NCBI GenBank assembly: GCA_023647555.1 | Contig: JALRLY010000231.1 | Coordinates: forward strand, 1 to 33,147 | Direction: 5' to 3' | DNA length: 33,147 bases | From: Pancytospora philotis | Lineage: Eukaryota; Microsporidia | The notes under the pieces: generated by a model | Seen by the model: the letters and a program-made list of their open reading frames with translations, nothing else | Database searches by the model: none | What the model was told of the DNA's origin: nothing | Part shown: positions 11,914 to 33,147 of the stretch, one piece after another | Layout: the number at the start of each line of letters is the position of its first letter | Numbering within the stretch: position 1 is the stretch's first letter | Position numbers and translations under genes: made by a program

Positions 11914-12384
11914 TTAGTACTCATTAACACTGTTCCTGTGGGGCTTTCCAGGCCGGCGGAAATACGCGCTGGGGCTGAACTCGTCACGGAGAATCTCAGG
12001 ATTGGTCCTATAGCCCTCGTGTATTTCAAAAGGAACGGTTATGTCCGTAAAATCCTCTCTGGTCCAGTCAGTTTCCGTGTATTCGTACTGCACGCATTTA
12101 CCGTAGGCGTACTGCACACAGCGCCAGGATTTATCGGTGGGGATCTGCTCCTTCCGGCCGCGCATCGGTCCACGGACGGCGTGGAGTTGTTGCACGCCAC
12201 GTGTGCGGTGCGGCCGGGAGCTGTGCGGAGCACCCGTGTCATACTGCGAAAGCCCGCCTGTGGTAAAAAGGTTACCGTAGCCCGGCCCGTACGCGCCTAC
12301 ATGCGACAGGAGTACTAAGGCCATTAGAAGGAGGCGCTCTAAATAATGAATGCAGTAACTGCGCCGGATCGAGTGCAGCTGCAT
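11914..12384 (-). CDS. Small secreted protein, 156 residues, unknown function
   Basis: The N-terminus has a basic stretch and then a hydrophobic segment (LLLMALVLLSHVGAYG, residues about 18-33) that suits a signal peptide. The true start may instead be the second ATG, at 12324, which gives a shorter leader. The mature part is rich in Tyr, Gly, Arg and Thr, has two cysteines spaced eight apart (WRCVQYAYGKCVQYEY), and carries no motif I know. It faces the gene ending at 11764 tail to tail. Like the protein at 9013-9507 it is small, secreted and hydrophilic, but I could not align the two. Confidence 0.6.
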   Translation of the reverse strand: MQLHSIRRSYCIHYLERLLLMALVLLSHVGAYGPGYGNLFTTGGLSQYDTGAPHSSRPHRTRGVQQLHAVRGPMRGRKEQIPTDKSWRCVQYAYGKCVQYEYTETDWTREDFTDITVPFEIHEGYRTNPEILRDEFSPSAYFRRPGKPHRNSVNEY

Positions 12385-18615: not shown

Positions 18616-20259
18616 TTATTCCTCTGCTCTCGGCAGTCCCTGACGATGCGTCTGATTTGGCTTTGTTTTGAGTTTTGCTAACATTTCACACATTCGTTCA
18701 AACAGTTCCGCCTCGGATTGCGATCTTTCAGACTCCATGGCAAGGTAATTCTTTAACACTGTGCGCATGCGTTTAACCGGTTCTGGCTCCAATGGCGACT
18801 GCTCGGACCGGGCAGCAAAGCCCATACGGGAGTGCTGAGAGCTTCCCTCAGCAGAAGTAGAATCCGTCGCAGCAGCCATCTCATTATGGGTCCTTTTGCG
18901 GCTCGGTCCGGGTGCATCATCAGCAACAGTATCGCTTGTGCTAACAAGCTCAAAATCAGAACCAACAGCTTCTTCGTTATCTAACATATCATAAGAGCCC
19001 AACATATCCTGGTCATCTGCTTTAGTCTTACTAGCGACAAGTCTGTCGATATCCTCGAAGCTTAGAGACGAAGCATCCTCGGCAACAGCCGTGATCGCAT
19101 CATCAATCATTTTATCAATCTCCTCATGGCTTAGTGCCCGGTCGCGATGAGCGATTCTAAGGTTCTCAAAGACAGAATCGATACTGCTGACCAGGTAATT
19201 CAAGTATGGCTCAAACGTATGTGCGGACCGACATATTTGAACTTCATCGACGTGTTTCTGGAGAGCTTCCAGTTCATGAGCAAGTTGTTTTTGGGCCGCG
19301 AGCCAGAAGGACCCCCATCCTGCATAATCCATTTCCGGATACACGAGATGCACAGACATGTACGGGTCCATTCCATATTTGGACAAGTATGGGGCCATTT
19401 CGCGTAGACGAATTGCCCTGCTAATAACCCCTGCCGAGATTCTTTCCTGAACACCCCAAACATAGGCGAGCGCCTTTTCGCAATAAACTGTAAACCTATT
19501 GATAAGGCCGTCATCGAGCACTTGGGGAGCATCATCTGTCCTTGATACGCGCGTAAGTATGTAACCACGGAAACATTCCCAAGATTCCCTCTGCATAGCA
19601 CCATAGCGATGGTCTAATTCTTTCCTGAGTGCGTCCAGTTCTCCGATCGCAGCGTCATCGAGACTTTCAAGTTCTTTAGCCTGAGGATTTTCGACAACGC
19701 TCTCAAGCCTTGCTGATACATGGGAGATTGCTGACATAATAGCACAAAATTCCCTATAGTTATAATCATAAGCATCCATCAAAGACTCGACATGTGTATA
19801 ATTCCTACGCAACAGCTCTGAATTTGAGAAAAAGGGCACCATAAAGTCAATGAGCGCGCTGACCACGGTCTTTACTATATTTTCACCGACGCGCTTTTCG
19901 AAACTATTCTGTTGATAGACACTGTTCACATAAATTATGAGAACAATCTGGTATCTCTTACAGAGCTGCTCTTTCCACGCTTCAGAGTAGCCAGATGCGG
20001 TCAAATCGCTTATGTCGGCCTCGTTCGCTTCCAGCGGGTTGTCTCCATGATTCGGTTTGGTGAGATTTTGTAAATCATAGTTAAAGCGTGAACAGACACT
20101 CGGCTCGTAGCGCTTTCTGCAATCACTGCCATGCGAAACAATGCCAGCATTGGTGTATTTCGCGTAGTATTCATCTGTTAATAAACCGGCTTGGTGCAGC
20201 GTATGCAAGGATGCCGCGAGGCAATGCGCGATGCATGTGAGCTTGATCGTGCAGCGCAT
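18616..20259 (-). CDS. Tandem secreted-family paralogue 1 (547 residues), novel family
   Basis: The longest of five tandem paralogues. It starts MRCTIKLTCIAHCLAASL, a weak signal peptide with likely cleavage after about residue 16-18, followed by the family sequence LLTDEYYAKY. Further family blocks are NSFEKRV (residue about 120), ELESLDDAAI with ELDALRKELD (about 195-215), and HLVYPEMDY near 305, followed by the helix AAQKQLAHELEALQKHVDEV. After residue about 390 comes a Ser/Asp/Glu-rich, probably disordered tail that is longer than in the sisters and contains two basic clusters, SRKRTHN (about 451) and PVKRMRTVLKN (about 495), which look like nuclear localisation signals. The stop TAA lies inside an AATAAA (18615-18620). 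Start context GAAAAATTTGCCCC is the window's standard motif. No known domain recognised. Confidence 0.85.
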   Translation of the reverse strand: MRCTIKLTCIAHCLAASLHTLHQAGLLTDEYYAKYTNAGIVSHGSDCRKRYEPSVCSRFNYDLQNLTKPNHGDNPLEANEADISDLTASGYSEAWKEQLCKRYQIVLIIYVNSVYQQNSFEKRVGENIVKTVVSALIDFMVPFFSNSELLRRNYTHVESLMDAYDYNYREFCAIMSAISHVSARLESVVENPQAKELESLDDAAIGELDALRKELDHRYGAMQRESWECFRGYILTRVSRTDDAPQVLDDGLINRFTVYCEKALAYVWGVQERISAGVISRAIRLREMAPYLSKYGMDPYMSVHLVYPEMDYAGWGSFWLAAQKQLAHELEALQKHVDEVQICRSAHTFEPYLNYLVSSIDSVFENLRIAHRDRALSHEEIDKMIDDAITAVAEDASSLSFEDIDRLVASKTKADDQDMLGSYDMLDNEEAVGSDFELVSTSDTVADDAPGPSRKRTHNEMAAATDSTSAEGSSQHSRMGFAARSEQSPLEPEPVKRMRTVLKNYLAMESERSQSEAELFERMCEMLAKLKTKPNQTHRQGLPRAEE

Positions 20260-20273
20260 GGGGCAAATTTTTC
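20260..20273 (-). promoter_or_regulatory. AAATTT/CCCC start-site motif of paralogue 1
   Basis: On the minus strand GAAAAATTTGCCCC directly abuts the ATG. The same string, with at most one or two changes, precedes paralogues 2, 4 and 5. Confidence 0.75.
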
Positions 20274-20807
20274 AGTGCCTTTTACAACCCAAGTGATGGG
20301 GGTAGGCAATTTTCTGCCCAGCCGGTCAGGTAACGCACAACCCAGTAAAGTGCGGTAAAGATCTGCTCCCTCCATATCTACGCTTGCAAATCAATGGGAA
20401 ATAGGCGCACTTAAATGCGTAGTCGCGCCGGTATCGATCGGACGTGCTGACGGGATGATGTGTAATATTCTCGAATAGAATACAATGACGTATGAAATCA
20501 GCAGTAAAGCGAATTACACGTGAGCAGGCAGTAGGTTGATTGGATGTCGACGAAATAGTAAACGAAGCCAACTCTTCTGCAAACGGGGGAATATAGCTCA
20601 TAGCTGCAACGCAACAGGTTCAGCCGGAGGGTAGGTATCCTACACATTCACTTCCTAGCCTCCGTTTCCCATAGATATCGTTAAGTTGTGAAGTGGCCAT
20701 GCACCCGTGAGCTCGAACTGAGTGTAGCAGGTGATACCACTGCGCGGGAGAAACTTTGAGCGCAGCGAGGCATAATAAAAAGCAAAACTAAAAAATGATA
20801 AGGCATT
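20260..20807. other. Gap between paralogues 1 and 2; conserved block and short-ORF remnant
   Basis: Besides the start motif this gap holds, at 20321-20334, the block GCCGGTCAGGTAAC, about 62 bases upstream of the paralogue 1 ATG; related blocks precede paralogues 3 and 4. A 91-codon minus-strand frame (20326-20601) contains an AEELAS segment that resembles SEELLS in the gaps upstream of paralogues 3 and 4, so it may be a decayed duplicate. The right half shows nothing I recognise. Confidence 0.4.
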
Positions 20808-22355
20808 TTAATCCTCCATCCTCTCGGGAGACTCTGAAGCGTTAGTCTTTCCTCCTTCAGTCTGTCCGTGAAGATGCCTCCGATTATGCTTCACTTTGGG
20901 CTTTGCTATCGTTTTACGGACGCGCTCGAGGCGTTCTGTTTTTGATTGTGACCAGGCGGCGCCGTACGCGCGGGAATGCTGAGGAGACCCTGCAGCAGAA
21001 GCTGGAGCGTTGTTAACGTTTATATTTTTATGAATGCTCTCAGGGCTCGGAACGGGTGTATCATTAGCAACAGTGCCAGCGATGTTGATGAGCTCAAATT
21101 CGCATCGAACTGAATCAGCAGAGCCCAACACATCTTCATCATCTACAGCAGCTTCGGCCTCATTAGCGATCAGTTCATCGATATCCTCAAAGCTTAGAGA
21201 AGAAATATCCTTGGCAACAGCTGTGATCGCATCGTCAACCATCCCAACTATCTTTTCACTGCCTAGCGTCTGGTCGCTATTAGTAATTCTATGACTCTCA
21301 AGGACCGAATCCATGCTCTCAACCAAGTACTTTACGTAAGGCTCGAGCTGCTGTTCAGACCTGCATCGTTGGACCTCGTCAACATGCCTCTGCAAAGCCT
21401 CTAATTCGACAGTAACTTGCTTCTGAGCCGCCTGCCAATAGTGCCTCCACGCCTCATAGTCCATTTCCGGATACACAAGATGCAGATGCTCATGCGGGTC
21501 CTTTTCGCCATTATAACGCATTAAGAAACCAAATATATGTCTCGATATATCTTCAGGGAATCCATGAGCGCATGCGAGCATCTTTTTGCAATACTTATCC
21601 AGGCGATCAATAAGATCATCATCAATCGCCTCAGGAATACGCGCTGAGGCTAACATGGGCGTGGGTATAGAATCGTTGAAATACTTACCGCAAGTGTGGT
21701 TCAGACAGTTATCGTCTAAACTCTCCCTAAGTTTGTCCAGCTTCTTGATCGCGGCGTCATCAAGGCTTTCGAGGTCGGTGACCTGGAAATTGTTAACAAA
21801 GGCCGAGAGCTTTTCCGTTAAAGTACCAAATGCTACTATCATACGACGGAACTCAGCATAATTAAAATCAAATGCCCGCGTTAGGGATCTTATATATGCG
21901 TAGCTCTTACGCAGCTGCTCTGAGGATGAAAGTGATTGCTTCATTCCTCCGATGAGCGCATCAATCACAATCTTTACCGTACTTTCCTCAAGGCGCTTTT
22001 CAAAACTACCCTGGTGATAGACCGTATCGACATAAACTCTGAGTAGATCCTTATATTTTTTGCATAGCAGATCCCTCCATTCCGTACGATAACTATATGC
22101 AGCAGTATCGCTTACGCCGGCCCCTTCTACCTTCAGGGGCTCGGCGTCGTAGTTCGGACGTGCTAGCCACTGCATTTCATACGCGAAACCGAGGAAGCAG
22201 CCCGGCATATAGCGCCTTCTGCTGTCGCTGGACGGGGGAGCAACGATCTTATTAGCCACTTGCGCGTAGTCATCGTCCGTTAATAACCCGACGCGGTGCC
22301 ACATGTGTGCCGCGAGGCAGCATGTAATGCTATTTAACATGATCGCGCAGCGCAT
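20808..22355 (-). CDS. Tandem secreted-family paralogue 2 (515 residues), novel family
   Basis: Starts MRCAIMLNSITCCLAAHMW, a short hydrophobic leader with a plausible LAA cleavage site, then RVGLLTDDDYAQ. Family blocks: GSFEKRLEES (about 118), DLESLDDAAI (about 197), HLVYPEMDY near 290-298 with AAQKQVTVELEALQRHVDEV after it. It is clearly closest to paralogue 3: both have HMWHRVGLLTDDDYA, a CFLGFAY block near residue 55, a DPHEHLHLVYPE-type sequence in place of the DPYMSVHLVYPE of paralogues 1 and 5, and the ending ESPERMED or EAPERMED. Cysteines (CLNHTCGKYF, about 220) are shared with paralogue 3 only. The tail is basic (KPKVKHNRRHLHG). The stop is part of ATTAAAA. Confidence 0.85.
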   Translation of the reverse strand: MRCAIMLNSITCCLAAHMWHRVGLLTDDDYAQVANKIVAPPSSDSRRRYMPGCFLGFAYEMQWLARPNYDAEPLKVEGAGVSDTAAYSYRTEWRDLLCKKYKDLLRVYVDTVYHQGSFEKRLEESTVKIVIDALIGGMKQSLSSSEQLRKSYAYIRSLTRAFDFNYAEFRRMIVAFGTLTEKLSAFVNNFQVTDLESLDDAAIKKLDKLRESLDDNCLNHTCGKYFNDSIPTPMLASARIPEAIDDDLIDRLDKYCKKMLACAHGFPEDISRHIFGFLMRYNGEKDPHEHLHLVYPEMDYEAWRHYWQAAQKQVTVELEALQRHVDEVQRCRSEQQLEPYVKYLVESMDSVLESHRITNSDQTLGSEKIVGMVDDAITAVAKDISSLSFEDIDELIANEAEAAVDDEDVLGSADSVRCEFELINIAGTVANDTPVPSPESIHKNINVNNAPASAAGSPQHSRAYGAAWSQSKTERLERVRKTIAKPKVKHNRRHLHGQTEGGKTNASESPERMED

Positions 22356-22370
22356 GGGGCAAATTTTTTA
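22356..22370 (-). promoter_or_regulatory. AAATTT/CCCC start-site motif of paralogue 2
   Basis: AAAAAATTTGCCCC on the minus strand directly before the ATG at 22355. Confidence 0.75.
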
Positions 22371-22775
22371 CCAATCTTTGTGAATTGTAGAATAGGGAAT
22401 AAGCGATTCTTGGCCCAAATTGGGCATATGAAACTACAATATTGTGGGATTCGTTGGAAGGCTTTAGGTAGGGAAAGAGGGCTGGATTGGCCAATCAGCC
22501 AGCTCAACATGAGAGCGAGATGGGCTTTGCCATTGATGATTGGAAAAATGGCCATTCTCCCGATCGAGGATGGAAGATCCGTTCACTTCGACTTCAGCAT
22601 CGCCAAGTGTCTCCCCAGCAGTTGTAATGTCCGTATAGATATAAAACAGCTATACAACCGCGAGCTTGAACTAGATTTGACGAGCGGTAATAACCACGCA
22701 AATAATCTTGATCACCGCGGGGAATATCAGGCACAATAAAAACCGATGAAGTAAAATTGAGAAATATAACGTATT
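22356..22775. other. Gap between paralogues 2 and 3
   Basis: 420 bases. A 73-codon minus-strand frame (22334-22555) has a hydrophobic start, but it overlaps the start of paralogue 2 and lacks support. The CTGRTCAG-type block found upstream of paralogues 1, 3 and 4 was not seen here. No RNA gene recognised. Confidence 0.4.
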
Positions 22776-24305
22776 TTAGTCCTCCATCCTCTCGGGAGCC
22801 TCTGAAGCAGTATTATCCCTTCCTCCGGTCTGTCTTTGAAGACACCTCCGATTACGCTGTGCCTGTGGGTCTGCCATCGTTTTACAGGCGCGTTCGAGCT
22901 GTTCTATCTTTAATAGCAACCACCCAGGCTGAGCGGTTCCTCCCGCATGAGAATGCTGAGGAGCCCCTTCAGCAGAGGCTGGAGTGTCTTCACGAATGCT
23001 CTCAGGGCTCGGAACAGGCGCACGGCTAGTACCGATATCGGTTATGCTGGTGAATTTAAAATCGGAGCGAACAGAACTGGTAGAGTCCAGCATACCCTCA
23101 TCGGCAGCTTCAGCATCAATGGCGATTAGCTTATCAATCTCCTCGAAGCTCAAGGCAGCAATATTCTCAGCAACAGCCGCAGTTGCACATTCAATTATAT
23201 CACAGCTCACTGCACGCCCACGATAAATGACTCCAAGATCCTTATTGGTGGAATCCATGATCTTAATCAAGTACTTTAAGTACGACTCAAGCTTTTGCCC
23301 CGACCGGCATCTTTGAACATCGTCGACATGCCTCTGCAGAGCTTCTAATTGAACAGTAACTTGCTTCTGAGCAGCCTGCCAAAAGTGCTCCCATGCCTCA
23401 TAGTCCAATTCCGGATACACGAGGTGCAGGTGCTCATATGGGTCCTTTCCACCATTACAACGCATTATGTAATCAGAAATTGTTCTCGATATATCTTCCG
23501 GGAATTCACAAACGCATTCAAGCATCTTTCTGCAATACCCATCCAGGCGATCAATGAGATCATCATCAATCACCTCAGGAATATGCGCTACGGTTAATAC
23601 AGGCGCGGGTATAGAATAGTAGAAATACTTACCACAGTTGTGGTTCAGGCAACGGGCGTCTAAGCTCTCCCTAATTGTATCCAGATTCTCGATCGTGGCG
23701 GCGTCAAGGCCTTCGAGGTTGGTGACCTGGAAATCATTGACAAAATCTGAAATCCGTTTCGACAAAGAATTGAATGCTATCATTATACGGCTAAACTCAG
23801 CATAATTAAGATCGAATACCTGGGTTAGGGATCTTAGATATGCGTAGCTCTTACGCAGGCGCTCTGAAGATGCGAATTTTTGTTTCAGCTCCTCAGTGTG
23901 CTTTTTGATGAAAAAATCCAGGTTCACTACGCTTTCTCCTCTGCGCTTCTCGAAACTATCTTCCGTATAAGCCAGCTTCCTATAATCTCTGAGTATATCG
24001 TTGTATTCTCTGCATAATTGTCCCTTCCACTCCGTGCGATAGCCAAATGCAGCAGTATCACTTACGCCGGCCCCTCCCACCTTCAGGGGCTCGTCGTCGC
24101 AGTTCGGACGTGCTAGGCTCCGCATTCCATACGCGAAGCCGAGGAAACAGCCCGGCATGTAGCGCCTTCTACCGTCGCCGGCAGGCGGCGCGACGACCTT
24201 ATGAGCTACTCGCGCGTAGTCATCGTCCGTTAATAGACCGACGCGGTGCCACATGTGGGCCGCGAGGCAACATGCAATGCAATTTAACATGATCACACAG
24301 CGCAT
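22776..24305 (-). CDS. Tandem secreted-family paralogue 3 (509 residues), novel family
   Basis: Starts MRCVIMLNCIACCLAAHMW, almost identical to paralogue 2 through the first 60 residues (GCFLGFAY, GAGVSDTAA, YRTEW). Family blocks: DSFEKRRGES (about 117), NLEGLDAATI (about 195), HLVYPELDY near 291-299 and AAQKQVTVQLEALQRHVDDV. Between the FEKR block and the next one its sequence differs strongly from paralogue 2 (DFFIKKHTEELKQKF), while the flanks remain close, so the pair looks recently duplicated with one divergent or exchanged segment. Unlike its four sisters, it has GAAAAAGGCACCCC before the ATG, where the ATTT core of the start motif is lost. The C-terminal tail is shorter and ends EAPERMED. 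Confidence 0.85.
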   Translation of the reverse strand: MRCVIMLNCIACCLAAHMWHRVGLLTDDDYARVAHKVVAPPAGDGRRRYMPGCFLGFAYGMRSLARPNCDDEPLKVGGAGVSDTAAFGYRTEWKGQLCREYNDILRDYRKLAYTEDSFEKRRGESVVNLDFFIKKHTEELKQKFASSERLRKSYAYLRSLTQVFDLNYAEFSRIMIAFNSLSKRISDFVNDFQVTNLEGLDAATIENLDTIRESLDARCLNHNCGKYFYYSIPAPVLTVAHIPEVIDDDLIDRLDGYCRKMLECVCEFPEDISRTISDYIMRCNGGKDPYEHLHLVYPELDYEAWEHFWQAAQKQVTVQLEALQRHVDDVQRCRSGQKLESYLKYLIKIMDSTNKDLGVIYRGRAVSCDIIECATAAVAENIAALSFEEIDKLIAIDAEAADEGMLDSTSSVRSDFKFTSITDIGTSRAPVPSPESIREDTPASAEGAPQHSHAGGTAQPGWLLLKIEQLERACKTMADPQAQRNRRCLQRQTGGRDNTASEAPERMED

Positions 24306-24771
24306 GGGGTGCCTTTTTCACAGCTTTTTGCAACCTGGAGAAAATGGAGGGGCTGGTGATCGCCTGTTCAGGCTGATCAGGTAATAAATGCAATTTTATA
24401 AATAGTAGCTGGTGGAATTGGAACTGACTTCATTAATCCCGTCGCAGCCATCCAGCGGGGTCCATTGCCCGCTTACGTATAAGTTGTGTTGATACTGATT
24501 TTACACGCTAGTTAATTCTATTCGCAGATTTTACACGTCAACCTGACAACAGTGGTAAAATTTTCCTTTGCACCGCAGGCACGCGATAGCAGCTCTTCTG
24601 AATACTGCCGTGGGGATACATCCAAAAAAAGCTGGCTGACACAGCAGAAAGGGGCAAAGCAGGAGCGGGCGAACCGCGCTCAGTTTGCTAAATTACTGTT
24701 TTAGCTCGGTAACGCTCTAATACTTAATACAGTAGCTTCCAATACAATTACTCTTCATACTTTTGATTATT
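24306..24771. other. Gap between paralogues 3 and 4; conserved blocks
   Basis: 466 bases. GCTGATCAGGTAAT at 24372-24385 lies 67 bases upstream of the paralogue 3 ATG and matches blocks in two other gaps. CGATAGCAGCTCTTCTGAAT at 24584-24603 is identical over 20 bases to 26222-26241. Read on the minus strand it encodes SEELLS in a frame that has no ATG, so a decayed copy of the short ORF at 26147-26335 is likely. Confidence 0.5.
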
Positions 24772-26091
24772 TTATTCTTTTGCCTTGGAAGATGCGTCCA
24801 GCTCCTCTTTTGATGCATCTTCGTTGCATATCCTTATCTTCGCCTCTATCTCCCTGGCAAATGTCGCCTCATCGAATGGCGCCTCTTCACAGCTTTTCCC
24901 ATGGGTCTGGTTAAACACCTTTTCCGCAACAGCTTCAATTTCGTTAGCAAGCAACGCACCGATTTCCTCTGGGCGGCGTGCATGATCAGGACGCTGCGCC
25001 TTGATGTGCTTCTCAGTGGCGATATCTATCCCCTCGAATAGCTCAGGCACAAAGCTGCGGTAAGTGGACATGCAGTAAGAAACCTCTTCGACATGCTTCT
25101 GCAAAGCCCTCACTTCGTTAGCCACTTGATTCTGACTTGCCCGCAAAAATGACCCCCAAGCTTTGTAGTCCATTTCTGGGTATACAAGATGAACGTAAAC
25201 ATATGGGTCCTTGCCATATGCAGACAAATATGAAAGGTTTCTGCGGATACAGACCGTGGAGTAGATTATAACTTCCGATACTTTTTCTTGGACTCCATAA
25301 ATATATGAAAGCGCATTTTTGCAATAATCTATGAAGCCATCGAAAAAATTACCATCGAGAGAATCAGCCATCCCCAATGTGCGCTTAGGTATGTAATTAT
25401 CGAAATATTCCCTTACCTCGCCCTTAATGTTATAATACCTCACATCTAACTCCTCCCTAAGTGCGTCCAGCTTCTCAATCGTCTTGTCATCGAGACTCTC
25501 GAGCTCTTTACTCAACGGATTACTGCTAGCATCTGAAATCTTCATTGATACGTGCATTATTGCTGATATAATAGCATTATACCTATTGTAATCACGCCTA
25601 TAAACCTTCACTAAAGATCTGATATATTCATAACTTTTGAGTAACCGTTCGGGAGATGAGAAGAAGCGCTCCATATCTTTAGTAAGTGCATTAGCCACGT
25701 CCGCTACTGTACTTTCGTCAACGCGCTTTTCGAAGCTATTCACGTGGTACACATCGTTTACATACTTTTCGGCTACCTTCCGGTATGCCTTGATGGACTG
25801 ATCCCTCCATTCCATATAGTGAGCAACGGCAGAGATATCACCCGCGCCTTCCTCCACCCCTTCCAGCCGGCAGCCCTCACAGATCGGCGCTGCAAGGTGC
25901 TGCAAGTCGTATTTGAAGCGTGAGAAAGCTCTCGGCTCGTAGGAATTGCTGGTGCTGCTGGCGTGCGTAATGGTGCCCGAGCTAATGTATATAGAGTAAT
26001 ACTCATCTCTTATTAAACCAGCCCGGTACAGCGTCGACAAGGAGGCCGCGAGGCACTGCGCAATGCATGTGAGCTTGGTCGTCCCGCGCAT
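24772..26091 (-). CDS. Tandem secreted-family paralogue 4 (439 residues), novel family
   Basis: The shortest paralogue. It starts MRGTTKLTCIAQCLAASL, then LYRAGLIRDEYYSIY, closest in the leader to paralogues 1 and 5. Family blocks: NSFEKRVDES (about 120), ELESLDDKTI and KLDALREELD (about 197-215), HLVYPEMDY near 300, followed by ASQNQVANEVRALQKHVEEV. The C-terminal tail after residue 340 is short, acidic and lysine-containing and lacks the Ser-rich region with basic clusters seen in paralogue 1. The TAA stop sits inside AATAAA (24771-24776). The start motif is GAAAAATTTGCCCC. The region between the FEKR block and the ELESLDD block is helical and charged (SPERLLKSYEYIRSL). Confidence 0.85.
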   Translation of the reverse strand: MRGTTKLTCIAQCLAASLSTLYRAGLIRDEYYSIYISSGTITHASSTSNSYEPRAFSRFKYDLQHLAAPICEGCRLEGVEEGAGDISAVAHYMEWRDQSIKAYRKVAEKYVNDVYHVNSFEKRVDESTVADVANALTKDMERFFSSPERLLKSYEYIRSLVKVYRRDYNRYNAIISAIMHVSMKISDASSNPLSKELESLDDKTIEKLDALREELDVRYYNIKGEVREYFDNYIPKRTLGMADSLDGNFFDGFIDYCKNALSYIYGVQEKVSEVIIYSTVCIRRNLSYLSAYGKDPYVYVHLVYPEMDYKAWGSFLRASQNQVANEVRALQKHVEEVSYCMSTYRSFVPELFEGIDIATEKHIKAQRPDHARRPEEIGALLANEIEAVAEKVFNQTHGKSCEEAPFDEATFAREIEAKIRICNEDASKEELDASSKAKE

Positions 26092-26105
26092 GGGGCAAAT
26101 TTTTC
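26092..26105 (-). promoter_or_regulatory. AAATTT/CCCC start-site motif of paralogue 4
   Basis: GAAAAATTTGCCCC on the minus strand directly before the ATG at 26091. Confidence 0.75.
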
Positions 26106-26146
26106 ACAGCATTTTATGGCCTGCGTAAAAAAGCGGCGGGCGATTG

Positions 26147-26335
26147 TTACTCGAGCTGGTCAGATAATGCACACAACTTGATATACTCTGGGCAAAAACA
26201 TTTCTTTTCGTTCGCGCTGCTCGATAGCAGCTCTTCTGAATGCCAAAGCGGATGCTCGTCCACAGGACGGCCGGTTAAGGCAGCAATGAGGGCTGAAATA
26301 GAAGCGATAGAAACGCATTTAGCTACCAAATTCAT
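26147..26335 (-). CDS. Possible small secreted peptide (62 residues) or remnant
   Basis: A short frame from an ATG at 26335, ending 55 bases before paralogue 4. It begins MNLVAKCVSIASISALIAAL, which reads as a good signal peptide, and the mature part carries three cysteines in KKCFCPEYIKLC. Its SEELLS segment corresponds to the 20-base identity with 24584-24603, where the homologous frame lacks a start. It may therefore be an intact small gene with decayed copies beside it, or simply a chance frame in a duplicated promoter region. It has no AAATTT/CCC motif. Confidence 0.3.
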   Translation of the reverse strand: MNLVAKCVSIASISALIAALTGRPVDEHPLWHSEELLSSSANEKKCFCPEYIKLCALSDQLE

Positions 26336-26403
26336 TATTCAACTTCTATAATATATGAATATCTAATACAATAGCCTACAACTTCATTATTATTTAAACT
26401 ATT

Positions 26404-27774
26404 TTATTCCTCCATTCTCTCAGCAGATGCCCCCGGCTCCTCGGTTACTGCATCTCCATCATTTCTACTTCTTTTCTGCGTTGGCTCCCCGGTAGATGCA
26501 GTCTCATCGATGGCCGTCTTTTCATTATCCTCCTCATGGTATAGGTTAAGCACTTTCTTAGCCAAAACTTCGATTTCACCACCGATTAACTTATTGGCCA
26601 AACTGGAGGTGAGCAGTATATAATCAGGCTTGTTAATTATGCTGTAGTCTATAACAGCGAAAACAGCCTCCTTAAATGCGCTATCGAGGTCATCAAATAG
26701 TCCTGGCTCAGTTTTGCGAATGTAAGACGTGCACCTGCGCACTTCATTGGCGAGCTTCTGTAAAGCCTCCAACTCGTTGGCAACTTGCTTCTGAGCAGCC
26801 CGCCAGAAAGATCCCCATTTTTCATAGTCCATTTCCGGATACACGAGATGCACCGACATGTAGGGGTCCTGGTTCCCTTTGTATGCATATCTGGGATAAC
26901 GTGAGATACTTTCGCGTATACGAATCGCCTCGTCGATAAAATTCTCTGATATTCTTTCCTGGACTCTATTAACATGTTTAAGCGCACGTTCGCAAAAATC
27001 TGTTACGCTATTAATAAGAGCATCATTAATTATATTAGAAGTTGCAGCTGTGTCTATCACATGCTGATCTATGTAATAATTAAAGCAACCTTCAAACGTA
27101 TTATGCATCACACCATGGCATTTGGTATCCAGTTTCATCCTAAGTGCGTTCAGCTGCCTGATCGTGTCGTCATCAAGCTCTGCGAGAACTTTGTCCTGTG
27201 GGTTTCCGACAACGTCCATGAGCTTTATTGATACATGAGCTATTCCCGACATAACTCCACGAAACCTTTTATATTTTTTATCGAAAGCTTCAATTAGAGC
27301 ACTAACATATGCATAACTTCTAAGCAACTGTTCTGGTTGTAATAGGAGCCGTTCTATATACAAAGTAAGCGCGCGGATCGCACCTCCAGCCGCATCTTTA
27401 CTAATGCGTTTTTTAAAACTATCCTTGTTGTAGATCATCCCCACATATATTCTGAGCGTTTCCTGGATCCTTTCAAGGGACTGCTGCTCCCATTGTGTAT
27501 AGTAATCACAGGCAGTGGTCTCGCCTATGTCTTCCCCATCCGCCACCAGCGGGCTGTCTCCATCGATCGGCTTTGCGAGATGCCGCATTTCATGGTGGAA
27601 GCGTAAGAAAACTTTCGGCTTGTAGGGGGGTTTGCCATCGTTGGCGGGTGAACAGATGCTATCGTCGATATATTTCGCGTAATATTCATCTGTTAATAAA
27701 CCGGCTTGGTGCAGCGTATGTAAAGATGCTGCGAGGCATTGCGCAATGCACGTGAGCTTGGCCATGTAACGCAT
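26404..27774 (-). CDS. Tandem secreted-family paralogue 5 (456 residues), novel family
   Basis: Starts MRYMAKLTCIAQCLAASL followed by HTLHQAGLLTDEYYAKY, identical in that stretch to paralogue 1. Family blocks: DSFKKRISKD (about 122, with FKKR replacing FEKR), LAELDDDTIRQLNALRMKLD (about 200-220), and DPYMSVHLVYPEMDY near 301-315 with AAQKQVANELEALQKLANEV. The C-terminal tail is short and contains TQKRSRND (about 430), a basic cluster like that of paralogue 1. The TAA stop is embedded in AATAAA (26403-26408). The start motif is AAAAAAATTTGACCC. It is the most upstream gene of the array, followed on the right by a long gap. Confidence 0.85.
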   Translation of the reverse strand: MRYMAKLTCIAQCLAASLHTLHQAGLLTDEYYAKYIDDSICSPANDGKPPYKPKVFLRFHHEMRHLAKPIDGDSPLVADGEDIGETTACDYYTQWEQQSLERIQETLRIYVGMIYNKDSFKKRISKDAAGGAIRALTLYIERLLLQPEQLLRSYAYVSALIEAFDKKYKRFRGVMSGIAHVSIKLMDVVGNPQDKVLAELDDDTIRQLNALRMKLDTKCHGVMHNTFEGCFNYYIDQHVIDTAATSNIINDALINSVTDFCERALKHVNRVQERISENFIDEAIRIRESISRYPRYAYKGNQDPYMSVHLVYPEMDYEKWGSFWRAAQKQVANELEALQKLANEVRRCTSYIRKTEPGLFDDLDSAFKEAVFAVIDYSIINKPDYILLTSSLANKLIGGEIEVLAKKVLNLYHEEDNEKTAIDETASTGEPTQKRSRNDGDAVTEEPGASAERMEE

Positions 27775-27789
27775 GGGTCAAATTTTTTT
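27775..27789 (-). promoter_or_regulatory. AAATTT/CCC start-site motif of paralogue 5
   Basis: AAAAAAATTTGACCC on the minus strand directly before the ATG at 27774. Confidence 0.75.
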
Positions 27790-28539
27790 CTGTCATTTCT
27801 GGCCAACGTAAAAAGGGGTGGAACATAACTGCTAAATCTGGTTGGATGTAGACATGGCCCGACGAATGCGTAGAATAAAATTCACCTGTCTTGATTTATA
27901 CACTTGCATAGCGGTAAAGGTGCCGTGCAGTTTTGCAGCTATTTAAGCCCACACTAATCTGGCAAAACGCAAAGCTGTCAAAGAAGCGTATCCCGCAGCG
28001 AGAAGTATGTAATGCCTACATTTGCTAGCTCGTTGTACTTTTCAGGTAATGTTTTGACAGCCCGTGTAAATAACCACTTATAGTAAGACGGATAGACCAA
28101 CCGCTCTCTTGAATATAGCCAGAATATTATTGGCGATCTGAACACTCCTTTATAATAAATCCCCATTGAGCAACTGCATTGGTTCATGTTCCACTGATAT
28201 TCGAAAGGAGGCGGTGCAGATCTTCAACAGGCTTTTTAATATAGCATTGCAGCTTTTTAATAGGTCTGATCTGATTATCTTGCACTGGCAAACTACCGCA
28301 AAGCATACGGCGAGTTACTGGGCGTTGAAACAACCCCTCGGTGGCCTCTGTGTATTTCTAGCCGTTCTTTAACTGCCCATCCTCTCCCAGCTTAGTCTGT
28401 TTCTTCAGTATATACCAAGTTAGCGATTCAGCGCTCAAACACAGAGACGATCGTAGAAATACAAGGGTGTTTAATGTTTGGGAAGAGCGCAGAAATGGAT
28501 GCATCTACACAAGTGGCATTTGGTACAAACGCATAGCGT
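27775..28539. other. Long gap between paralogue 5 and JAC1, no firm gene
   Basis: 765 AT-rich bases. A 69-codon minus-strand frame at 27978-28187 has an aromatic-rich peptide (PIIFWLYSRERLVYPSYY) but no start motif and no family match; it could be a relic. I found no copy of the conserved upstream block here and no RNA gene. Confidence 0.4.
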
Positions 28540-28986
28540 TCACTCGTCGCCGATCATGTCGTCCAGACGCCTGTAGTACGCCCAGCGCGTGATCCACTCG
28601 GGGTCGTCGTAGTGGCGCTTGCACTCGGCGATGCGGCCCCGCAGCTCCTGCCGCAGATTCGCGCCGCGGCTGATCCGCTCCTCGAGCTCGAGGCACTCGT
28701 TGAGGAAGCGCGGGCTCACCGCCTCGCTCGGGCTGGTGAAGAGCTTGGCGCGCAGGAAGTCGTCCTTGAGCGTGCTGTAGGCCTCGTTCAGCTGCGCGCT
28801 GTCGATCCGCTGCGCTGGCAACGCGCCAGAGATCCCGCGCCCGCCAGTGCTCGGCACGCGCATCTGCACGTCCGGGTGGGCCGCCTTGGACAGTCTGTAG
28901 TACTCTCGCTTCAGCTGCTCCTTGTCTATCTGGAACGCCGGCGGCATGCGGAAAACGCCGAAGATCTCCTTGGCCTTCTCGATCAT
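28540..28986 (-). CDS. JAC1: Jac1/Hsc20-type J-protein of iron-sulfur cluster assembly
   Basis: A 148-residue HscB/Jac1 co-chaperone, which docks the Isu scaffold to a mitochondrial-type Hsp70 for cluster transfer. In microsporidia this pathway sits in the mitosome. The J domain spans residues about 8-85: IFGVFRMPPAFQID, then LKREYYRLSKAAHPDV with the catalytic HPD at 37-39. An insert and LNEAYSTLKDDFLRAK follow, and then the C-terminal helical domain beginning FLNECLELEERI, which matches the Hsc20 Isu-binding domain (FLMEVLEINE in others). The frame is open upstream to an ATG at 29049, adding 21 residues, but GGGAATTTCAATCCC stands directly before the ATG at 28986 and the J domain begins there, so the shorter form is preferred. 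If the longer start is used, the extra residues are not an obvious targeting signal. Confidence 0.85.
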   Translation of the reverse strand: MIEKAKEIFGVFRMPPAFQIDKEQLKREYYRLSKAAHPDVQMRVPSTGGRGISGALPAQRIDSAQLNEAYSTLKDDFLRAKLFTSPSEAVSPRFLNECLELEERISRGANLRQELRGRIAECKRHYDDPEWITRWAYYRRLDDMIGDE

Positions 28987-29002
28987 GGGATTGAAATTCC
29001 CG
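28987..29002 (-). promoter_or_regulatory. AATTT/CCC start-site motif deciding the JAC1 start
   Basis: GGGAATTTCAATCCC on the minus strand abuts the ATG at 28986; the upstream ATG at 29049 has no such motif. Confidence 0.5.
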
Positions 29003-29137
29003 TCTTGTAAATCGGCGATAGAAGCGACAGTTGCGGTATGCTGCAGCATTTTAAACAGTTATCAAGCCGAAGCACTAGTAGAATAGAGTCATACGATATA
29101 ATTTAGTTACAGTAGTTGGAATGCACAAGCCCTGCAC

Positions 29138-30436
29138 TCAAAGGGCCTCCACGCGCTGCTCGACGCTCAGCATGCGCTGGCCCCGGTACGGCGTGTCCCT
29201 CGCGTTCGGCGACCGCCAGACGGGGTCGAAGATGGCCACATCATCGATATCAGTCATTTTCCTTGAGATGTTGCGCTCGGTCATGATCTTTGAGAGGTAG
29301 AGCGAGTTCTTGCCCGCGTCGTCCTTCTCGATGTCGATGCTCGCGGCGGGCGGCGCCGTGTACGGATCGATCACCAGCATCCAGATATCCTCGCAGTGCT
29401 TGATGTCGGACAGCAGCCTGCTGCAGGAATTGATCTCCTCGGCGTTGTTGATCAGGTACCACCGCTTCTTCTTGTCGATCGTGTCCTCATCGTTGCCGAT
29501 GATCTCCATGCCCGCGATCCGCCGCACAAACGGCACGAGGACCCGCAGACGGTCTATGCTGACCGCATACTGCCCGTACAGCTTGAGGAGGCGGTTCAGC
29601 CGCGCGGCCACGAAGCGGTTGCAGTTCGCCGCGATCTCGCAGCTGCGCGGGTCGCGGATGCTGAAATAGCCGATTATCTCGGCGTGGATGCCCACCATGT
29701 AGTTCGCCAGCTGGACATGATAGTAGTCGATCACCGTCCTGTGCTCGGCGTTCGTCAGCTTCTCGACCGGCGTGTCCAGCGTCTTGTATCGCACCGTGGC
29801 TGCGCTCCTGTCCTTGATCACGTAGTCTATGAGCTTTATGATGCGGCCTCTCGGCTGCTTTTTCTCGTAGTCGTAGAGGCAGTGGAGTTTGTCGCCGAAC
29901 TTTGTGCTCACCAGCTGCTCGAGCATCACCTCGTAGAACAGGTCGAGCCCTGCGATCGCCCTGCCCAGGTCCTTCTGCACGGCGCGGGCCGCCGTCACCG
30001 CGCGATTGTGGTTCGTGCGGATGAGGCTGGAGCGCTCGTCTCTGAAGGGCGAGCTCAGATTCACCACGCTGTAGTCCCGCACGTACGTGATGCACGCGTC
30101 GTAGAAGTCGTGATACGCCGGGGTGAATATCCTGTACGGATCGAGCTGCTGCTTGAGGACGCGGCTGAGCGCCTCCTCGAAGTTCGCGAGGTTGCCGAGG
30201 TAAAAGTTGAGCATCTTGCTGATCTCGCTGAAGTTGCTCTTCTGCAGCAGCCGCCGCTCCACGGGGCCGGCTATCGATCTGCTGATCACGGCGCCGTAGG
30301 TGTCTTTCGTCACTGCGACGCTGTTTCTCAGCGTGTCGGTCTGGGAGACCGTGTCGCCCGCGGTGCTGAACGACGACTTCGCCCTGTTCACCATCGCGCT
30401 CCCGAACTCTAATATTTTTAGAAAGAACGCCCGCAT
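29138..30436 (-). CDS. 432-residue helical protein of unknown function
   Basis: The GC-rich codon use matches the conserved genes, which suggests a real and possibly conserved protein, but I do not recognise it. It is almost entirely predicted helix, with a basic, mildly hydrophobic N-terminus (MRAFFLKILEFGSAM) and no other membrane segment. Residues about 60-330 have long amphipathic helices, and NYMVGIHAEIIGYFSIRDPR (about 250-270) recalls the way BAR domains end their long helices, though that is a weak resemblance. The C-terminal 100 residues look less ordered. The frame extends upstream to a GTG at 30460; the ATG at 30436 is preferred because CCCC and, further up, AAAAATTTT precede it. 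The gene is divergent from the Mis18-like gene, sharing a 370-base promoter region. Confidence 0.75.
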   Translation of the reverse strand: MRAFFLKILEFGSAMVNRAKSSFSTAGDTVSQTDTLRNSVAVTKDTYGAVISRSIAGPVERRLLQKSNFSEISKMLNFYLGNLANFEEALSRVLKQQLDPYRIFTPAYHDFYDACITYVRDYSVVNLSSPFRDERSSLIRTNHNRAVTAARAVQKDLGRAIAGLDLFYEVMLEQLVSTKFGDKLHCLYDYEKKQPRGRIIKLIDYVIKDRSAATVRYKTLDTPVEKLTNAEHRTVIDYYHVQLANYMVGIHAEIIGYFSIRDPRSCEIAANCNRFVAARLNRLLKLYGQYAVSIDRLRVLVPFVRRIAGMEIIGNDEDTIDKKKRWYLINNAEEINSCSRLLSDIKHCEDIWMLVIDPYTAPPAASIDIEKDDAGKNSLYLSKIMTERNISRKMTDIDDVAIFDPVWRSPNARDTPYRGQRMLSVEQRVEAL

Positions 30437-30806
30437 TAGGGGCGGAATACTCGAATTCACAAAATTTTTATTGCAGGATTAGTCTATCAGAAATACTCAT
30501 CGTTGTTAGCAGTATGGCTGGTGTATGCGCGTCCCTGCGTAATGTAAGTTTTTGTGCTTCCCCGCCCGGGCTCTACTGCAATCAGTAAAAAGAGTCAAGC
30601 AAAGCGCACTAAAAAGATCAATAAAATGATCGCGCGCTAGATTTTTTAACTTGTGACTGATGGCTAGTACACCATATTTTTAGCTGTGGGCAACTACTGC
30701 CAGCTGCTTACTTTCTTTTAAAGATACTCTCTGTGCACAGCCCGCCGATCAGCCACACAGCTCATCCCCCGCCATGCACACACAGTTTACAAATTTTAGA
30801 GCCCCA
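30437..30806. promoter_or_regulatory. Shared divergent promoter region
   Basis: 370 AT-rich bases between the divergent 432-residue gene and the Mis18-like gene. AAAATTTTT at 30461-30469 with GGGG at 30439-30442 serves the left gene (its motif is stretched compared with others); AAATTTT at 30791-30797 and CCCC at 30802-30805 serve the right one. Nothing else recognised. Confidence 0.55.
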
Positions 30807-31214
30807 ATGAGCGACGGAGGCCTGCGCAACCCATTCGTCGTGCAGTGCAGAAGCTGCCGGAGCATCCTCAGCGACTCGTTCACGCTGCACACGCTGAAGC
30901 ACGGCTTCCTGGTGCACGCGCACGGCACGCTGCAGCCCGCGGCGGGCGTGTACGCGGGCGGCGGGCTCTTCTCGAAGTGCCAGCTGCAGGACCTCGTGTG
31001 CGCGTGCGGCGCGCGCACCGGGCACTTCATCGCGAGCGGCGGCGGCGAGTGGAACGGCTGCGCGGAGATGTACGCGTTCGACAAGAACCGGATCACAAGC
31101 TACGTGCTGGGCACCGAGGCGGCCACCGAGAAGAGCCTGTACGAGGTCGTGGACGATGTCGAGAAGCTCAAGACCGTGGTGGCCAAGCTCTACAAGAAGG
31201 TGTACCAGCTGTAG
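30807..31214 (+). CDS. Mis18-like centromere protein (Yippee/Mis18 zinc fold)
   Basis: A 135-residue protein that fits the Mis18 family, which primes centromeres for loading of the CENP-A histone. The first half is the Yippee-Mis18 zinc fold: VVQCRSCRSILSDSFTLH (C14, C17) parallels the Mis18 FQC..CR..VGDS start, and LQDLVCACGARTGHF (C65, C67) is the second cysteine pair. The diagnostic ITSYVLG near residue 102 matches the ESYVLG that closes the fold in Mis18-alpha. A C-terminal helix (YEVVDDVEKLKTVVAKLYKKV) corresponds to the coiled coil through which Mis18 oligomerises. The second pair is CxC rather than CxxC, which is unusual; C58 is nearby. The ATG at 30774 is in frame, but the motif favours 30807. 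A plain Yippee protein is less likely because of the YVLG block and coiled coil. Confidence 0.75.
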   Translation: MSDGGLRNPFVVQCRSCRSILSDSFTLHTLKHGFLVHAHGTLQPAAGVYAGGGLFSKCQLQDLVCACGARTGHFIASGGGEWNGCAEMYAFDKNRITSYVLGTEAATEKSLYEVVDDVEKLKTVVAKLYKKVYQL

Positions 31215-31620
31215 GCGCACTGGGGTGTTTTGGAACGATGATTAAATTATCAAACAGAAGGGTATGTGTTGTATGAATGAGTGTTTGTATGGATATTTGT
31301 TGCTTTGCGCTATAAAAATAGCTGTGCGATCGTTCTAGCACATGGTTCTAGTACGGCAAGAAAAACCGATGATGTAATGAGTTGTCCATTGTTCGCTGAG
31401 CAAAAAGGCGCGCTATTTCGCTGCTCTGTTCCACGCGGCCCTGAGCGAGGGTAAAAAATCTGATAAAAAGCGGAGGCTCCTAAAATAGAGAATACCAGGG
31501 CTGGCACTTGGCATACCACAGCATCTGCATCCATTTGAGCCATCCCAGCGGCTGTGCACCGGCATTCGCCGCGGTTGGCTAAAAATTTGTATTTAATAGC
31601 GCGAAAATTTTTGGGCAGCT
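31215..31620. other. Intergenic region with start motif of MAK21
   Basis: 406 bases without a supported gene. AAAATTTTT at 31604-31612 followed by GGG at 31613-31615 precedes the MAK21 ATG at 31621, so here the GGG form replaces CCC. A second AAAAATTT at 31581-31588 lies just upstream. Confidence 0.55.
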
Positions 31621-32919
31621 ATGGGTGTGAAACGCGCTGATCCAGCGGCCAGAGGCAGCAAGGGACGCGGCGATGCGGGCAGGCCGAGATCGGGCAGCGG
31701 GTTCGGCAAGGACAAGCGGCGCGACCACAGCGACAGCAAAGACAAGCGGCGCGACCACAGCGACAGCAAGGATGCGCACAGCCCGTCGAAGACCAAGAAG
31801 CCGAGCGGGCCGCAGATAGAGTACGTGCTCGACGACGCGACGCCCGAGGAGCGCACGCTCATCAAGGAGGGGACGATGGCGGACCGCATCAACTGCCTTT
31901 CGCTGCTCTGCGCACGCAGCCCGACCGTGGAGAACTACAAGCAGCTGCTGTTCTTCGCCGAGAACCAGCGCAACGACGTGATGTACCACGTGCTCAAGAA
32001 TCTGCGGGACCTGCTCAGGGAGAAGATCGTGGACGATCTGTACATCCGCGGGCGCATAGTGAAGACCTTCGACCGCGGGCTGAAGAACCAGTACATCAAG
32101 GAGAAGGTGATCGATCTGGTGGGCGTGCTAGTGCGCACGGGCGTGTACGTGGAGGAGTTCGCGTCTCTGCTCGTCGAGCGGCTGCTTGAGAAGGACAAGG
32201 CGCTGCGGCTGGTCGAGACCGAGCTCAAGCGGATCATCCTCAAGCACCAGGAGCTCGTGGTCTCGTACATCGAGGACTTCTACTACAAGAACGACACCTT
32301 CCGTGTGCAGTACATCATCCTGCGCTTCCTCTCCACGGTGGATCTGCCCAACCCCGCGAGCCTCTTTGATTTCTACAACCAGGCGCTCACGACGCTGGAC
32401 ACCGAGTACCCGACCGACCAGTACAATCTGATGCTCGACTGCGTCATCAACGGGCTGAGCATCTCTGCCGAGCCGGGCGCGGTGGTGGAGCGCATCGAGC
32501 TGGTCAGGAACTTCGTCGGCTCGCCCAAGACTGTCATTTCGTGTCTGCGCCTGCTCACCAAGCTGGCCGATCCCTTCCTCGAGGCGTACATCATCCGTAC
32601 CGTCAAGTCCTCGATACTCCGTGCCACGCCACAGGAGGCCGATTTCCTGAACGTCATCGCCGGTCTGGACAATAAGTCGCTGATCACCAAGATTGTGAAT
32701 GACTGCTTCTTCTACTCCGTTTCCTTTATCATCGCTGTGATGCTGATCGCTTCTGAGAAGGGCGTGGATCCGAGCGGCCTGTACAGCATTGCCATTCTTA
32801 TACGGCACTACCACCCGGCGGTGCGCGAGGCGGCCGCCAAGCTGATGCGCGACGAACCGCTGCCTATGTACGATCCGTATGACCGTGTGCTGCTCGATTC
32901 TATCACTGCAATGTACTAA
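31621..32919 (+). CDS. MAK21: MAK21/NOC1-like 60S ribosome biogenesis protein (reduced)
   Basis: A 432-residue version of MAK21/NOC1 (CEBPZ in animals), which with Noc2 escorts early pre-60S particles in the nucleolus. After a basic, repeat-containing N-terminus (1-60) comes GTMADRINCLSLLCARSP, matching the family GTLSDKISALTLLVQESP, then helical repeats through the CBF-type domain. The end is very characteristic: IRHYHPAVREAAAKLMRDEPLPMYDPYD (about 395-422) matches LSLHYHPTVSLYASRLLNHEPMP in yeast Mak21. Yeast Mak21 is about 1,000 residues, so the acidic C-terminal part and long inserts have been lost. The start context carries AAAATTTTTGGG. Codon use is strongly GC-rich, as for SDA1, with which it shares a pathway but not a neighbourhood. 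Confidence 0.85.
   Translation: MGVKRADPAARGSKGRGDAGRPRSGSGFGKDKRRDHSDSKDKRRDHSDSKDAHSPSKTKKPSGPQIEYVLDDATPEERTLIKEGTMADRINCLSLLCARSPTVENYKQLLFFAENQRNDVMYHVLKNLRDLLREKIVDDLYIRGRIVKTFDRGLKNQYIKEKVIDLVGVLVRTGVYVEEFASLLVERLLEKDKALRLVETELKRIILKHQELVVSYIEDFYYKNDTFRVQYIILRFLSTVDLPNPASLFDFYNQALTTLDTEYPTDQYNLMLDCVINGLSISAEPGAVVERIELVRNFVGSPKTVISCLRLLTKLADPFLEAYIIRTVKSSILRATPQEADFLNVIAGLDNKSLITKIVNDCFFYSVSFIIAVMLIASEKGVDPSGLYSIAILIRHYHPAVREAAAKLMRDEPLPMYDPYDRVLLDSITAMY
31711..31770. repeat. Two-copy 30-bp direct repeat inside MAK21
   Basis: The 30 bases at 31711-31740 recur at 31741-31770 with a single third-position change at the last base. They encode DKRRDHSDSK twice in the basic N-terminal extension, so the duplication keeps the frame. 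Confidence 0.9.
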
Positions 32920-33147
32920 GAGCGATGTTATTGCTGCTTATTACTGCAGTGGTCAGTGGCTTATGCTTTATTCAGTAAATTAGATGGATAACATGATTTT
33001 TGTGGTGTAGCTGCGTTCTATCTAATGGTCAAAACATATTAATTGTGTCTCTAAGAAGTGCATGTGAAATAAAATCAGCTTTGTTGAGAATAAGATTCAT
33101 CACTGTCTGCAGTGCTAGTAAATCCTAAACCATTACTATTGCAGCAT
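32920..33147. other. Intergenic end of window
   Basis: 228 AT-rich bases after MAK21 with AATAAA-like stretches near 33,067. No gene seen. Confidence 0.5.

What the first reader, a model, noticed from the sequence alone, without database searches (positions are those of the whole stretch)
18616..27774. Array of five tandem, secreted-looking paralogues of an unrecognised family
Five same-strand genes (547, 515, 509, 439 and 456 residues) share the MR...CLAA leader, LLTDEYYAKY, a FEKR block, an E-L-D-D block, and a nearly invariant HLVYPEMDY at residue about 290-310 followed by an AAQKQ helix. I know no described domain with this layout; the microsporidian families I can recall (InterB-type, leucine-rich, ricin-type) do not show these blocks. 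The conservation of one central block with diverging flanks and tails suggests a functional core under constraint and variable ends under diversification, as expected for a family facing a host.
Basis: partly seen in the sequence, partly recalled or inferred. Interest (0 to 1): 0.88.

Follow-up and report, generated by a model that had tools for sequence, protein, structure and literature searches.

The report
Parasite gene family with swapped tails
A microscopic worm parasite carries a family of about two dozen related, helical and probably secreted proteins that appear to have exchanged their tail ends at one conserved spot; the kind of family is familiar in these parasites, but the tail swapping looks new.

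Summary
In detail: five intact tandem paralogues lie at the stated coordinates, though several quoted motifs are exact in only two to four of them. The window is a contig of Pancytospora philotis, a nematode-infecting microsporidium (inferred). The family has about 26 loci on 14 contigs. No Pfam family or solved-structure sequence matches, and the six database proteins found all come from this genome. It is a large gene family of the kind catalogued by Wadi et al. 2023; its catalogue number could not be checked. Secretion stays likely but unproven: leaders are moderately hydrophobic, yet two of three distant relatives start like textbook signal peptides. Positive selection at the ends is not seen (pooled dN/dS below 1 in every region). 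Of 85 strongly crossing triples, 81 break in or beside the conserved HLVYPEMDY...HVDEV block.

The parts
18616..20259 (-). gene 1, 547 aa, body groups with genes 4/5, tail type A; structure model mf81dfa01178f
20808..22355 (-). gene 2, 515 aa, tail type A; closest to gene 3
22776..24305 (-). gene 3, 509 aa, tail type A
24772..26091 (-). gene 4, 439 aa, tail type B; structure model mba96ec8b7e92
26404..27774 (-). gene 5, 456 aa, tail type B; its second 'copy' on contig C24 is read as an assembly overlap
20212..20259 (-). conserved leader, residues 1-16, gene 1
22308..22355 (-). leader, gene 2
24258..24305 (-). leader, gene 3
26044..26091 (-). leader, gene 4
27727..27774 (-). leader, gene 5
19237..19350 (-). 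conserved block HLVYPEMDY...HVDEV, gene 1 (residues 304-341): junction of body and tail
21369..21482 (-). conserved block, gene 2
23313..23426 (-). conserved block, gene 3
25078..25191 (-). conserved block, gene 4 (end set by the alignment; the script's pattern stopped earlier)
26737..26850 (-). conserved block, gene 5
18616..19236 (-). tail type A, gene 1: helices, a very low-confidence stretch, C-terminal long helix
20808..21368 (-). tail type A, gene 2
22776..23312 (-). tail type A, gene 3
24772..25077 (-). tail type B, gene 4
26404..26736 (-). tail type B, gene 5
20260..20277 (-). AAATTT...CCCC directly before the start codon, gene 1 (like the published microsporidian AAATTT/CCC signal)
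22356..22373 (-). AAATTT...CCCC before gene 2
24306..24323 (-). CCCC before gene 3 (no AAATTT)
26092..26109 (-). AAATTT...CCCC before gene 4
27775..27792 (-). AAATTT...CCC before gene 5

Best explanation
These are five members of a large gene family of Pancytospora philotis. Each protein has a short conserved leader, an all-helical body of about 270 residues, a conserved 38-residue block that begins one long helix, and a C-terminal tail of one of two types. Shown by computation: duplication in tandem and across contigs, purifying selection strongest on the block, the usual microsporidian start signal, and tails that do not follow the phylogeny of the bodies. Inferred: recombination or gene conversion between paralogues, with exchange points in the conserved block, swaps tails in frame without breaking the helix that joins body and tail. 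Inferred further: the leader sends the soluble proteins out of the parasite into the host intestinal cell, where body and tail make different contacts, so that reassorting them widens the repertoire.
For: 28 tblastn places, about 26 loci on 14 contigs (one overlap removed). Identity among tail-A genes equals that between A and B genes up to column 340 (0.33 and 0.31 at columns 201-300), then 0.47 against 0.19 at 369-420 and 0.51 against 0.17 at 421-470, 0 of 1000 label shuffles as high. Body tree of 20 genes: tail A needs 5 changes (shuffled mean 5.3, 298 of 500 as low); one clade of tail-A genes rejected, p-AU 2.4e-6. Clearest case: C83d has the body of C22b and the tail of its neighbour C83c, chi-square 231.5 against at most 20.9 in 5000 permutations; gene 1 is nearer gene 5 than gene 2 in the body (0.58 of informative sites) and nearer gene 2 in the tail (0.77), 0 of 5000 permutations. 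81 of 85 triples with chi-square over 40 and a crossing pattern, of 3420 triples, break at columns 321-385. Pooled dN/dS 0.18 in columns 300-375, 0.29 and 0.27 in columns 1-20 and 21-36, 0.37-0.51 elsewhere. Both models are all-helical, the block starting a long helix. CCC within 6 nt before the ATG in 24 of 24 rows, 50 of 1093 window ATGs. For secretion: relatives on C16, two of three with textbook-like signal peptides; hhalign probability 94% and 97%, two unrelated single-sequence controls 0.1%. No stretch hydrophobic enough for a membrane helix past the leader.
Against: Leader hydrophobicity (best 9-residue Kyte-Doolittle mean 1.20-2.47, mostly 1.4-2.1) is lower than in the clear signal peptides here (2.37-3.41) and overlaps four cytosolic-looking controls (1.43-1.83); C26b has lost the leader; the third C16 relative has no clear signal peptide. 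A leader at 55-57% identity against 31-38% in columns 37-300 is unusual for a plain signal peptide. The A/B contrast is weaker in columns 471-611, where few pairs remain (58 of 1000 shuffles as high). Only 6 of 17 inner branches of the body tree are strongly supported. MaxChi triples share genes and are not independent, and breaks tend to be placed where A and B tails begin to differ. Models are of modest confidence (mean pLDDT 59.5 and 62.3, pTM 0.59 and 0.52, 8 sequences). No expression, localisation or host-interaction data.
Confidence: 0.6

Rival explanations
1. An ordinary duplicated host-exposed family whose two tail types arose by independent loss or divergence along the tree, with no exchange between genes.
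For: Tails A and B look distantly alike by eye in their first 60 or so residues, so B could be a decayed A.
Against: C83d and C22b have close bodies (pS 0.26-0.64, pN 0.02-0.20 per region up to column 375) but far tails (0.74/0.55), while the tail end of C83d is 87% identical over 373 bp to that of C83c. Decay cannot produce a close match to a third gene.
Confidence: 0.1
2. The leader is not a secretion signal but a cytosolic or membrane-associating N-terminus (for example a cysteine-acylated or organelle-directed helix), and the family acts inside the parasite.
For: Moderate hydrophobicity, cysteines at positions 3, 9 and 13 in many members (13 in all 20), constrained sequence with dN/dS 0.29.
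Against: Two of three aligned distant relatives begin like textbook signal peptides; expansion and lineage restriction are typical of host-exposed families (PMC5423893, passages read).
Confidence: 0.25
3. Mosaic genes are artefacts of a fragmented assembly in which paralogues were joined wrongly.
For: The assembly has 83 contigs, N gaps inside family genes on C51 and C56, and an overlap of contigs C8 and C24 left unmerged.
Against: The partners have diverged since the exchange (C83d and C22b bodies differ at about a third of synonymous sites; C83d and C83c tail ends are 87% identical), which a recent misjoin would not show. Tail type is independent of body across all 20 genes, not only in one.
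Confidence: 0.1

Closest known systems
PanLGF families of Pancytospora (Wadi et al. 2023, PMC10393165)
   Same: Same genus and, by inference, same genome; [quoted passage not shown]
   Different: [quoted passage not shown] this family has about 26 loci. Its modelled member PAPHI01_0471 should lie on a contig of 78-124 kb by tag order, where no member was found (inference).
NemLGF1 (Nematocida and Pancytospora; PMC5423893, PMC10393165)
   Same: Secretion signal, several domains, a less conserved helical C-terminal domain, lineage-specific expansion (as described in the papers).
   Different: 81 members are reported in P. philotis and 45 in P. epiphaga; here about 26 loci, and no hit outside this genome. 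No NemLGF1 sequence was at hand for a direct test.
InterB / DUF1609 family and leucine-rich or ricin-B families of microsporidia
   Same: Expanded microsporidian families.
   Different: No such Pfam match in any of 20 members at E <= 0.01.
Encephalitozoon cuniculi subtelomeric interAE/interD families (PMC4704409)
   Same: Recombination sites inside genes of multigene families (passages read).
   Different: Those are subtelomeric families of membrane-associated proteins in segmental repeats; here soluble-looking genes, an array inside a contig, and breaks in one conserved coding block.

Membership tests
Microsporidian large gene family (criteria of PMC5423893 / PMC10393165) | at least 10 paralogues in one genome | tested here: met
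   28 places, about 26 loci after removing the C24 overlap and joining the split C56 gene; 21 full-length ORFs
[quoted passage not shown]
   hydropathy proxy only, intermediate values; no signal-peptide predictor available
Microsporidian large gene family (criteria of PMC5423893 / PMC10393165) | restricted to a species or clade (typical, not required) | tested here: inconclusive
   6 of 6 database proteins found are from this genome, three named P. philotis, but only the 7996 candidates sharing most words were scored and several members of this genome were not listed either
PanLGF1 | homology to PAPHI01_0471; over 100 members in a species | tested here: inconclusive
   copy number lower and no member on a contig of the expected size, but the sequence itself was not available
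NemLGF1 | three-domain fold shared by Nematocida and Pancytospora proteins | not testable with these tools
   no NemLGF1 sequence or model was fetched
InterB / DUF1609 | Pfam DUF1609 domain | tested here: not met
   20 members scanned at E <= 0.01; three isolated hits, to other families; that this copy of Pfam holds DUF1609 was not checked
Leucine-rich or ricin-B microsporidian families | LRR or ricin-B Pfam domain | tested here: not met
   no such match among 20 members; both models all-helical

The most novel reading that the evidence does not exclude
The conserved 38-residue block is kept both as the hinge of the fold and as an exchange site, making the family a combinatorial system: one set of helical bodies and two kinds of tails reassorted in frame by recombination, a modular effector repertoire in a microsporidium that needs no accelerated point mutation.
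Probability: 0.3. Interest if true: 0.7.

Novelty: new variant of a known kind. Interest (0 to 1): 0.48.

Why it matters
Large lineage-specific families are a main source of predicted host-exposed proteins in microsporidia (PMC5423893, passages read), yet how they diversify is little known. Here diversifying point mutation is not detected while module exchange is, and the exchange site can be named to within a few dozen residues. That gives a testable prediction for other P. philotis isolates and a way to ask whether tails or bodies bear on host specificity (this parasite infected Oscheius tipulae but not the closely related Oscheius sp. 3; PMC5179134, passages read).

Tried and rejected

A solitary tail-like hit on contig C60 lies in a zinc-finger ORF and is taken as chance. 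Positive selection: not seen by pooled pairwise NG86 counts, with most pairs near saturation; no site models were run. Contig-end location: nine of 27 loci or fragments end within 2.5 kb of a contig end (positions), but contigs tend to break in repeats, so this is not counted for or against a subtelomeric bias. Kinship with two other window genes was tested and not found. The third protein search, with the C16 relatives, found two proteins, both P. philotis. Recalculation of breakpoints with a stricter cut-off replaced a looser first scan (384 crossing triples, breaks again mostly at columns 320-399).

Not found in print: searches for PanLGF/NemLGF1/Pancytospora, microsporidia with gene conversion and multigene (12 of 24 papers listed) and large families with structure prediction listed no paper whose title or abstract deals with tail exchange in this family. 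Only openly licensed PMC papers are covered, and supplements could not be read.
Full report
WHAT WAS CHECKED. The five ORFs are real, intact and tandem at the coordinates given and align over their full length, genes 2-5 being 40-46% identical to gene 1.

WHERE IT COMES FROM. The window is a whole contig (C8, 33,147 bases) of an 83-contig, 3.68-Mb assembly. Proteins PAPHI01_0639, 0285, 2082, and 1707 with 1708, named Pancytospora philotis, lie on contigs of 78,152, 124,509, 29,064 and 41,598 bases, which are the lengths of contigs C10, C38, C83 and C16 of this assembly. I infer that the genome is P. philotis, an intestinal parasite of the nematode Oscheius tipulae (PMC5179134, passages read), sequenced by Wadi et al. 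2023 (PMC10393165; outline with abstract, sections 8 and 10, and passages read).

HOW MANY COPIES. A single-protein search gives 28 places. C24:1-2843 and C24:6300-6716 are 100% identical to window 26432-29274 and 32731-33147; I read this as one overlap of two contig ends, so that the C24 'copy' of gene 5 is not a separate gene. One gene on C56 is split by N. That leaves about 26 loci on 14 contigs: 20 full-length members aligned in A2, a divergent full-length one on C16, and five partial ones, three at contig ends (C22a, C83a, C83e) and two at N gaps (C56, C51; C51 shows only a leader, in a stretch 94% identical to C56, and may not be separate). A further truncated leader lies at the end of C38. 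All 27 matches of the leader search fall in family loci, the C24 overlap or that truncated leader. Counts of this tool are lower bounds.

RELATIVES. Three neighbouring genes on C16 (371-376 aa) are distant relatives: hhalign of their profile gives 94% probability over 243 columns against the family profile, and 97% against the intermediate C16 member; two other window genes, as single sequences, give 0.1%. Two of the three begin like textbook signal peptides, the third does not clearly. Two profile searches of 5.8 billion proteins found six proteins, all from this genome. These searches scored only 7996 candidates and did not list genes 3 and 4 or most other members, so absence elsewhere is weak evidence.

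ANATOMY. Two AlphaFold models from eight sequences (mean pLDDT 59.5 and 62.3, pTM 0.59 and 0.52) are almost wholly helical. The leader has low confidence. The best-predicted parts are about residues 91-170, 251-270 and 321-400. The conserved block begins one long helix (309-365 in gene 4; 312-344 followed by 346-370 in gene 1). Tail A of gene 1 has two further helices, a very low-confidence stretch at 413-492 and a C-terminal helix at 493-532. No stretch past the leader is hydrophobic enough for a membrane helix (best 19-residue mean 1.42). No fold match is convincing.

START SIGNALS AND COMPOSITION. CCC lies within six bases of the start codon in 24 of 24 rows examined (23 distinct loci, the C24 overlap being one row) and AAATTT-like plus CCC in 17 of 24; of 1093 window ATGs, 50 and 8 do. 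This resembles the published microsporidian signal (PMC2803860, passages read, abstract in part) and occurs at several other window genes, so it speaks for ordinary expressed genes, not for specialisation. GC at third codon positions is 0.36-0.65 in 25 family rows against 0.67-0.92 in 14 other window ORFs, close to intergenic DNA; the C16 relatives have 0.56-0.62.

SELECTION. Pooled pairwise dN/dS (190 pairs, 20 genes) is 0.18 in columns 300-375, 0.29 and 0.27 in columns 1-20 and 21-36, and 0.37-0.51 elsewhere; four close pairs give 0.30-0.42 overall. The core is held by purifying selection, and since its pooled synonymous difference is the highest (0.70), not by recent homogenisation. There is no sign of positive selection, with the reservation that most pairs are near saturation.

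TAIL EXCHANGE. Six of the 20 genes carry tail A (window genes 1-3, C10a, C22b, C38b, the last shortened) and fourteen tail B; the partial C83e also has tail A but was not in the count. In a tree of columns 1-330, tail type needs 5 changes, as in shuffled labels (mean 5.3, 298 of 500 as low); starred branches, 6 of 17, force 3; the tail-A genes as one clade are rejected (p-AU 2.4e-6). The groups were named from the tails before the tree was made. Mean identity among tail-A genes equals that between A and B genes along the body and parts at columns 341-368 (0.63 against 0.55, 13 of 1000 shuffles) and beyond (0.47 against 0.19 and 0.51 against 0.17, 0 of 1000; 0.34 against 0.20 in columns 471-611, 58 of 1000, few pairs) (the pairs gene 2-gene 3 and C22b-C83d were left out of the observed means). 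Triple scans put 81 of 85 strongly crossing breaks, out of 3420 triples, at columns 321-385, which is residues 294-350 of gene 1; triples share genes and are not independent. The cleanest case is C83d: body of C22b, tail of its neighbour C83c, chi-square 231.5 against at most 20.9 in 5000 permutations. In the window, gene 1 groups with genes 4 and 5 by body (support 100/98) but is nearer genes 2 and 3 by tail.

HOW IT PROBABLY WORKS. Shown: duplication, constraint on the block, tails independent of bodies. Inferred: recombination or gene conversion between paralogues, many of them neighbours, uses the most alike coding stretch; because this stretch is the start of a long helix linking body and tail, exchanged products stay in frame and foldable. 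[quoted passage not shown] Secretion is the weakest step: the leader is moderately hydrophobic and more conserved than a signal peptide needs to be.

WHAT IS KNOWN. Wadi et al. [quoted passage not shown] philotis. This family meets the size criterion; the signal criterion is open. Its number in their table is unknown to me, as supplements were closed. Locus tags fall in order of contig length on the four contigs I can compare, which would put the PanLGF1 example PAPHI01_0471 on a contig of 78-124 kb where no member was found; I therefore doubt, but cannot exclude, that this is PanLGF1. Recombination inside multigene-family genes is known at Encephalitozoon cuniculi chromosome ends (PMC4704409, passages read). 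Body-tail exchange at one conserved block in a microsporidian family was not found in the listings.

VERDICT. A real family of a known kind, in a sequenced species, very likely covered by an existing catalogue, with one feature that looks new and is well supported by sequence statistics: modular exchange of tails.

Noticed in passing
window 4150-5571 (+): 473-aa protein with a signal-peptide-like start belongs to a second family in this genome (17 places, many on contig C13), with no kinship to the array by hhalign.
   Followed up: partly
window 26432-33147 and G000:C24:1-6716: Apparently a perfect overlap of two contig ends (about 3.3 kb of 6.7 kb compared, 100% identical); C24 would continue the chromosome to the right by about 7.4 kb.
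   Followed up: partly
L055 (G000:C38:123900-124509): A family leader breaks off and runs into a short tandem repeat that reaches the contig end.
   Followed up: partly
window 18616-27774: GC at third codon positions is far lower in the five genes than in 14 other window ORFs (0.46-0.53 against 0.67-0.92); cause unknown.
   Followed up: partly
L005 (G000:C26, 34.6 kb): One member has lost the hydrophobic leader while keeping the CCCC before its start codon.
   Followed up: no
window 9013-9507 (-) and 11914-12384 (-): Two further short ORFs with strongly hydrophobic N-termini and no Pfam match; their families were not sought.
   Followed up: no
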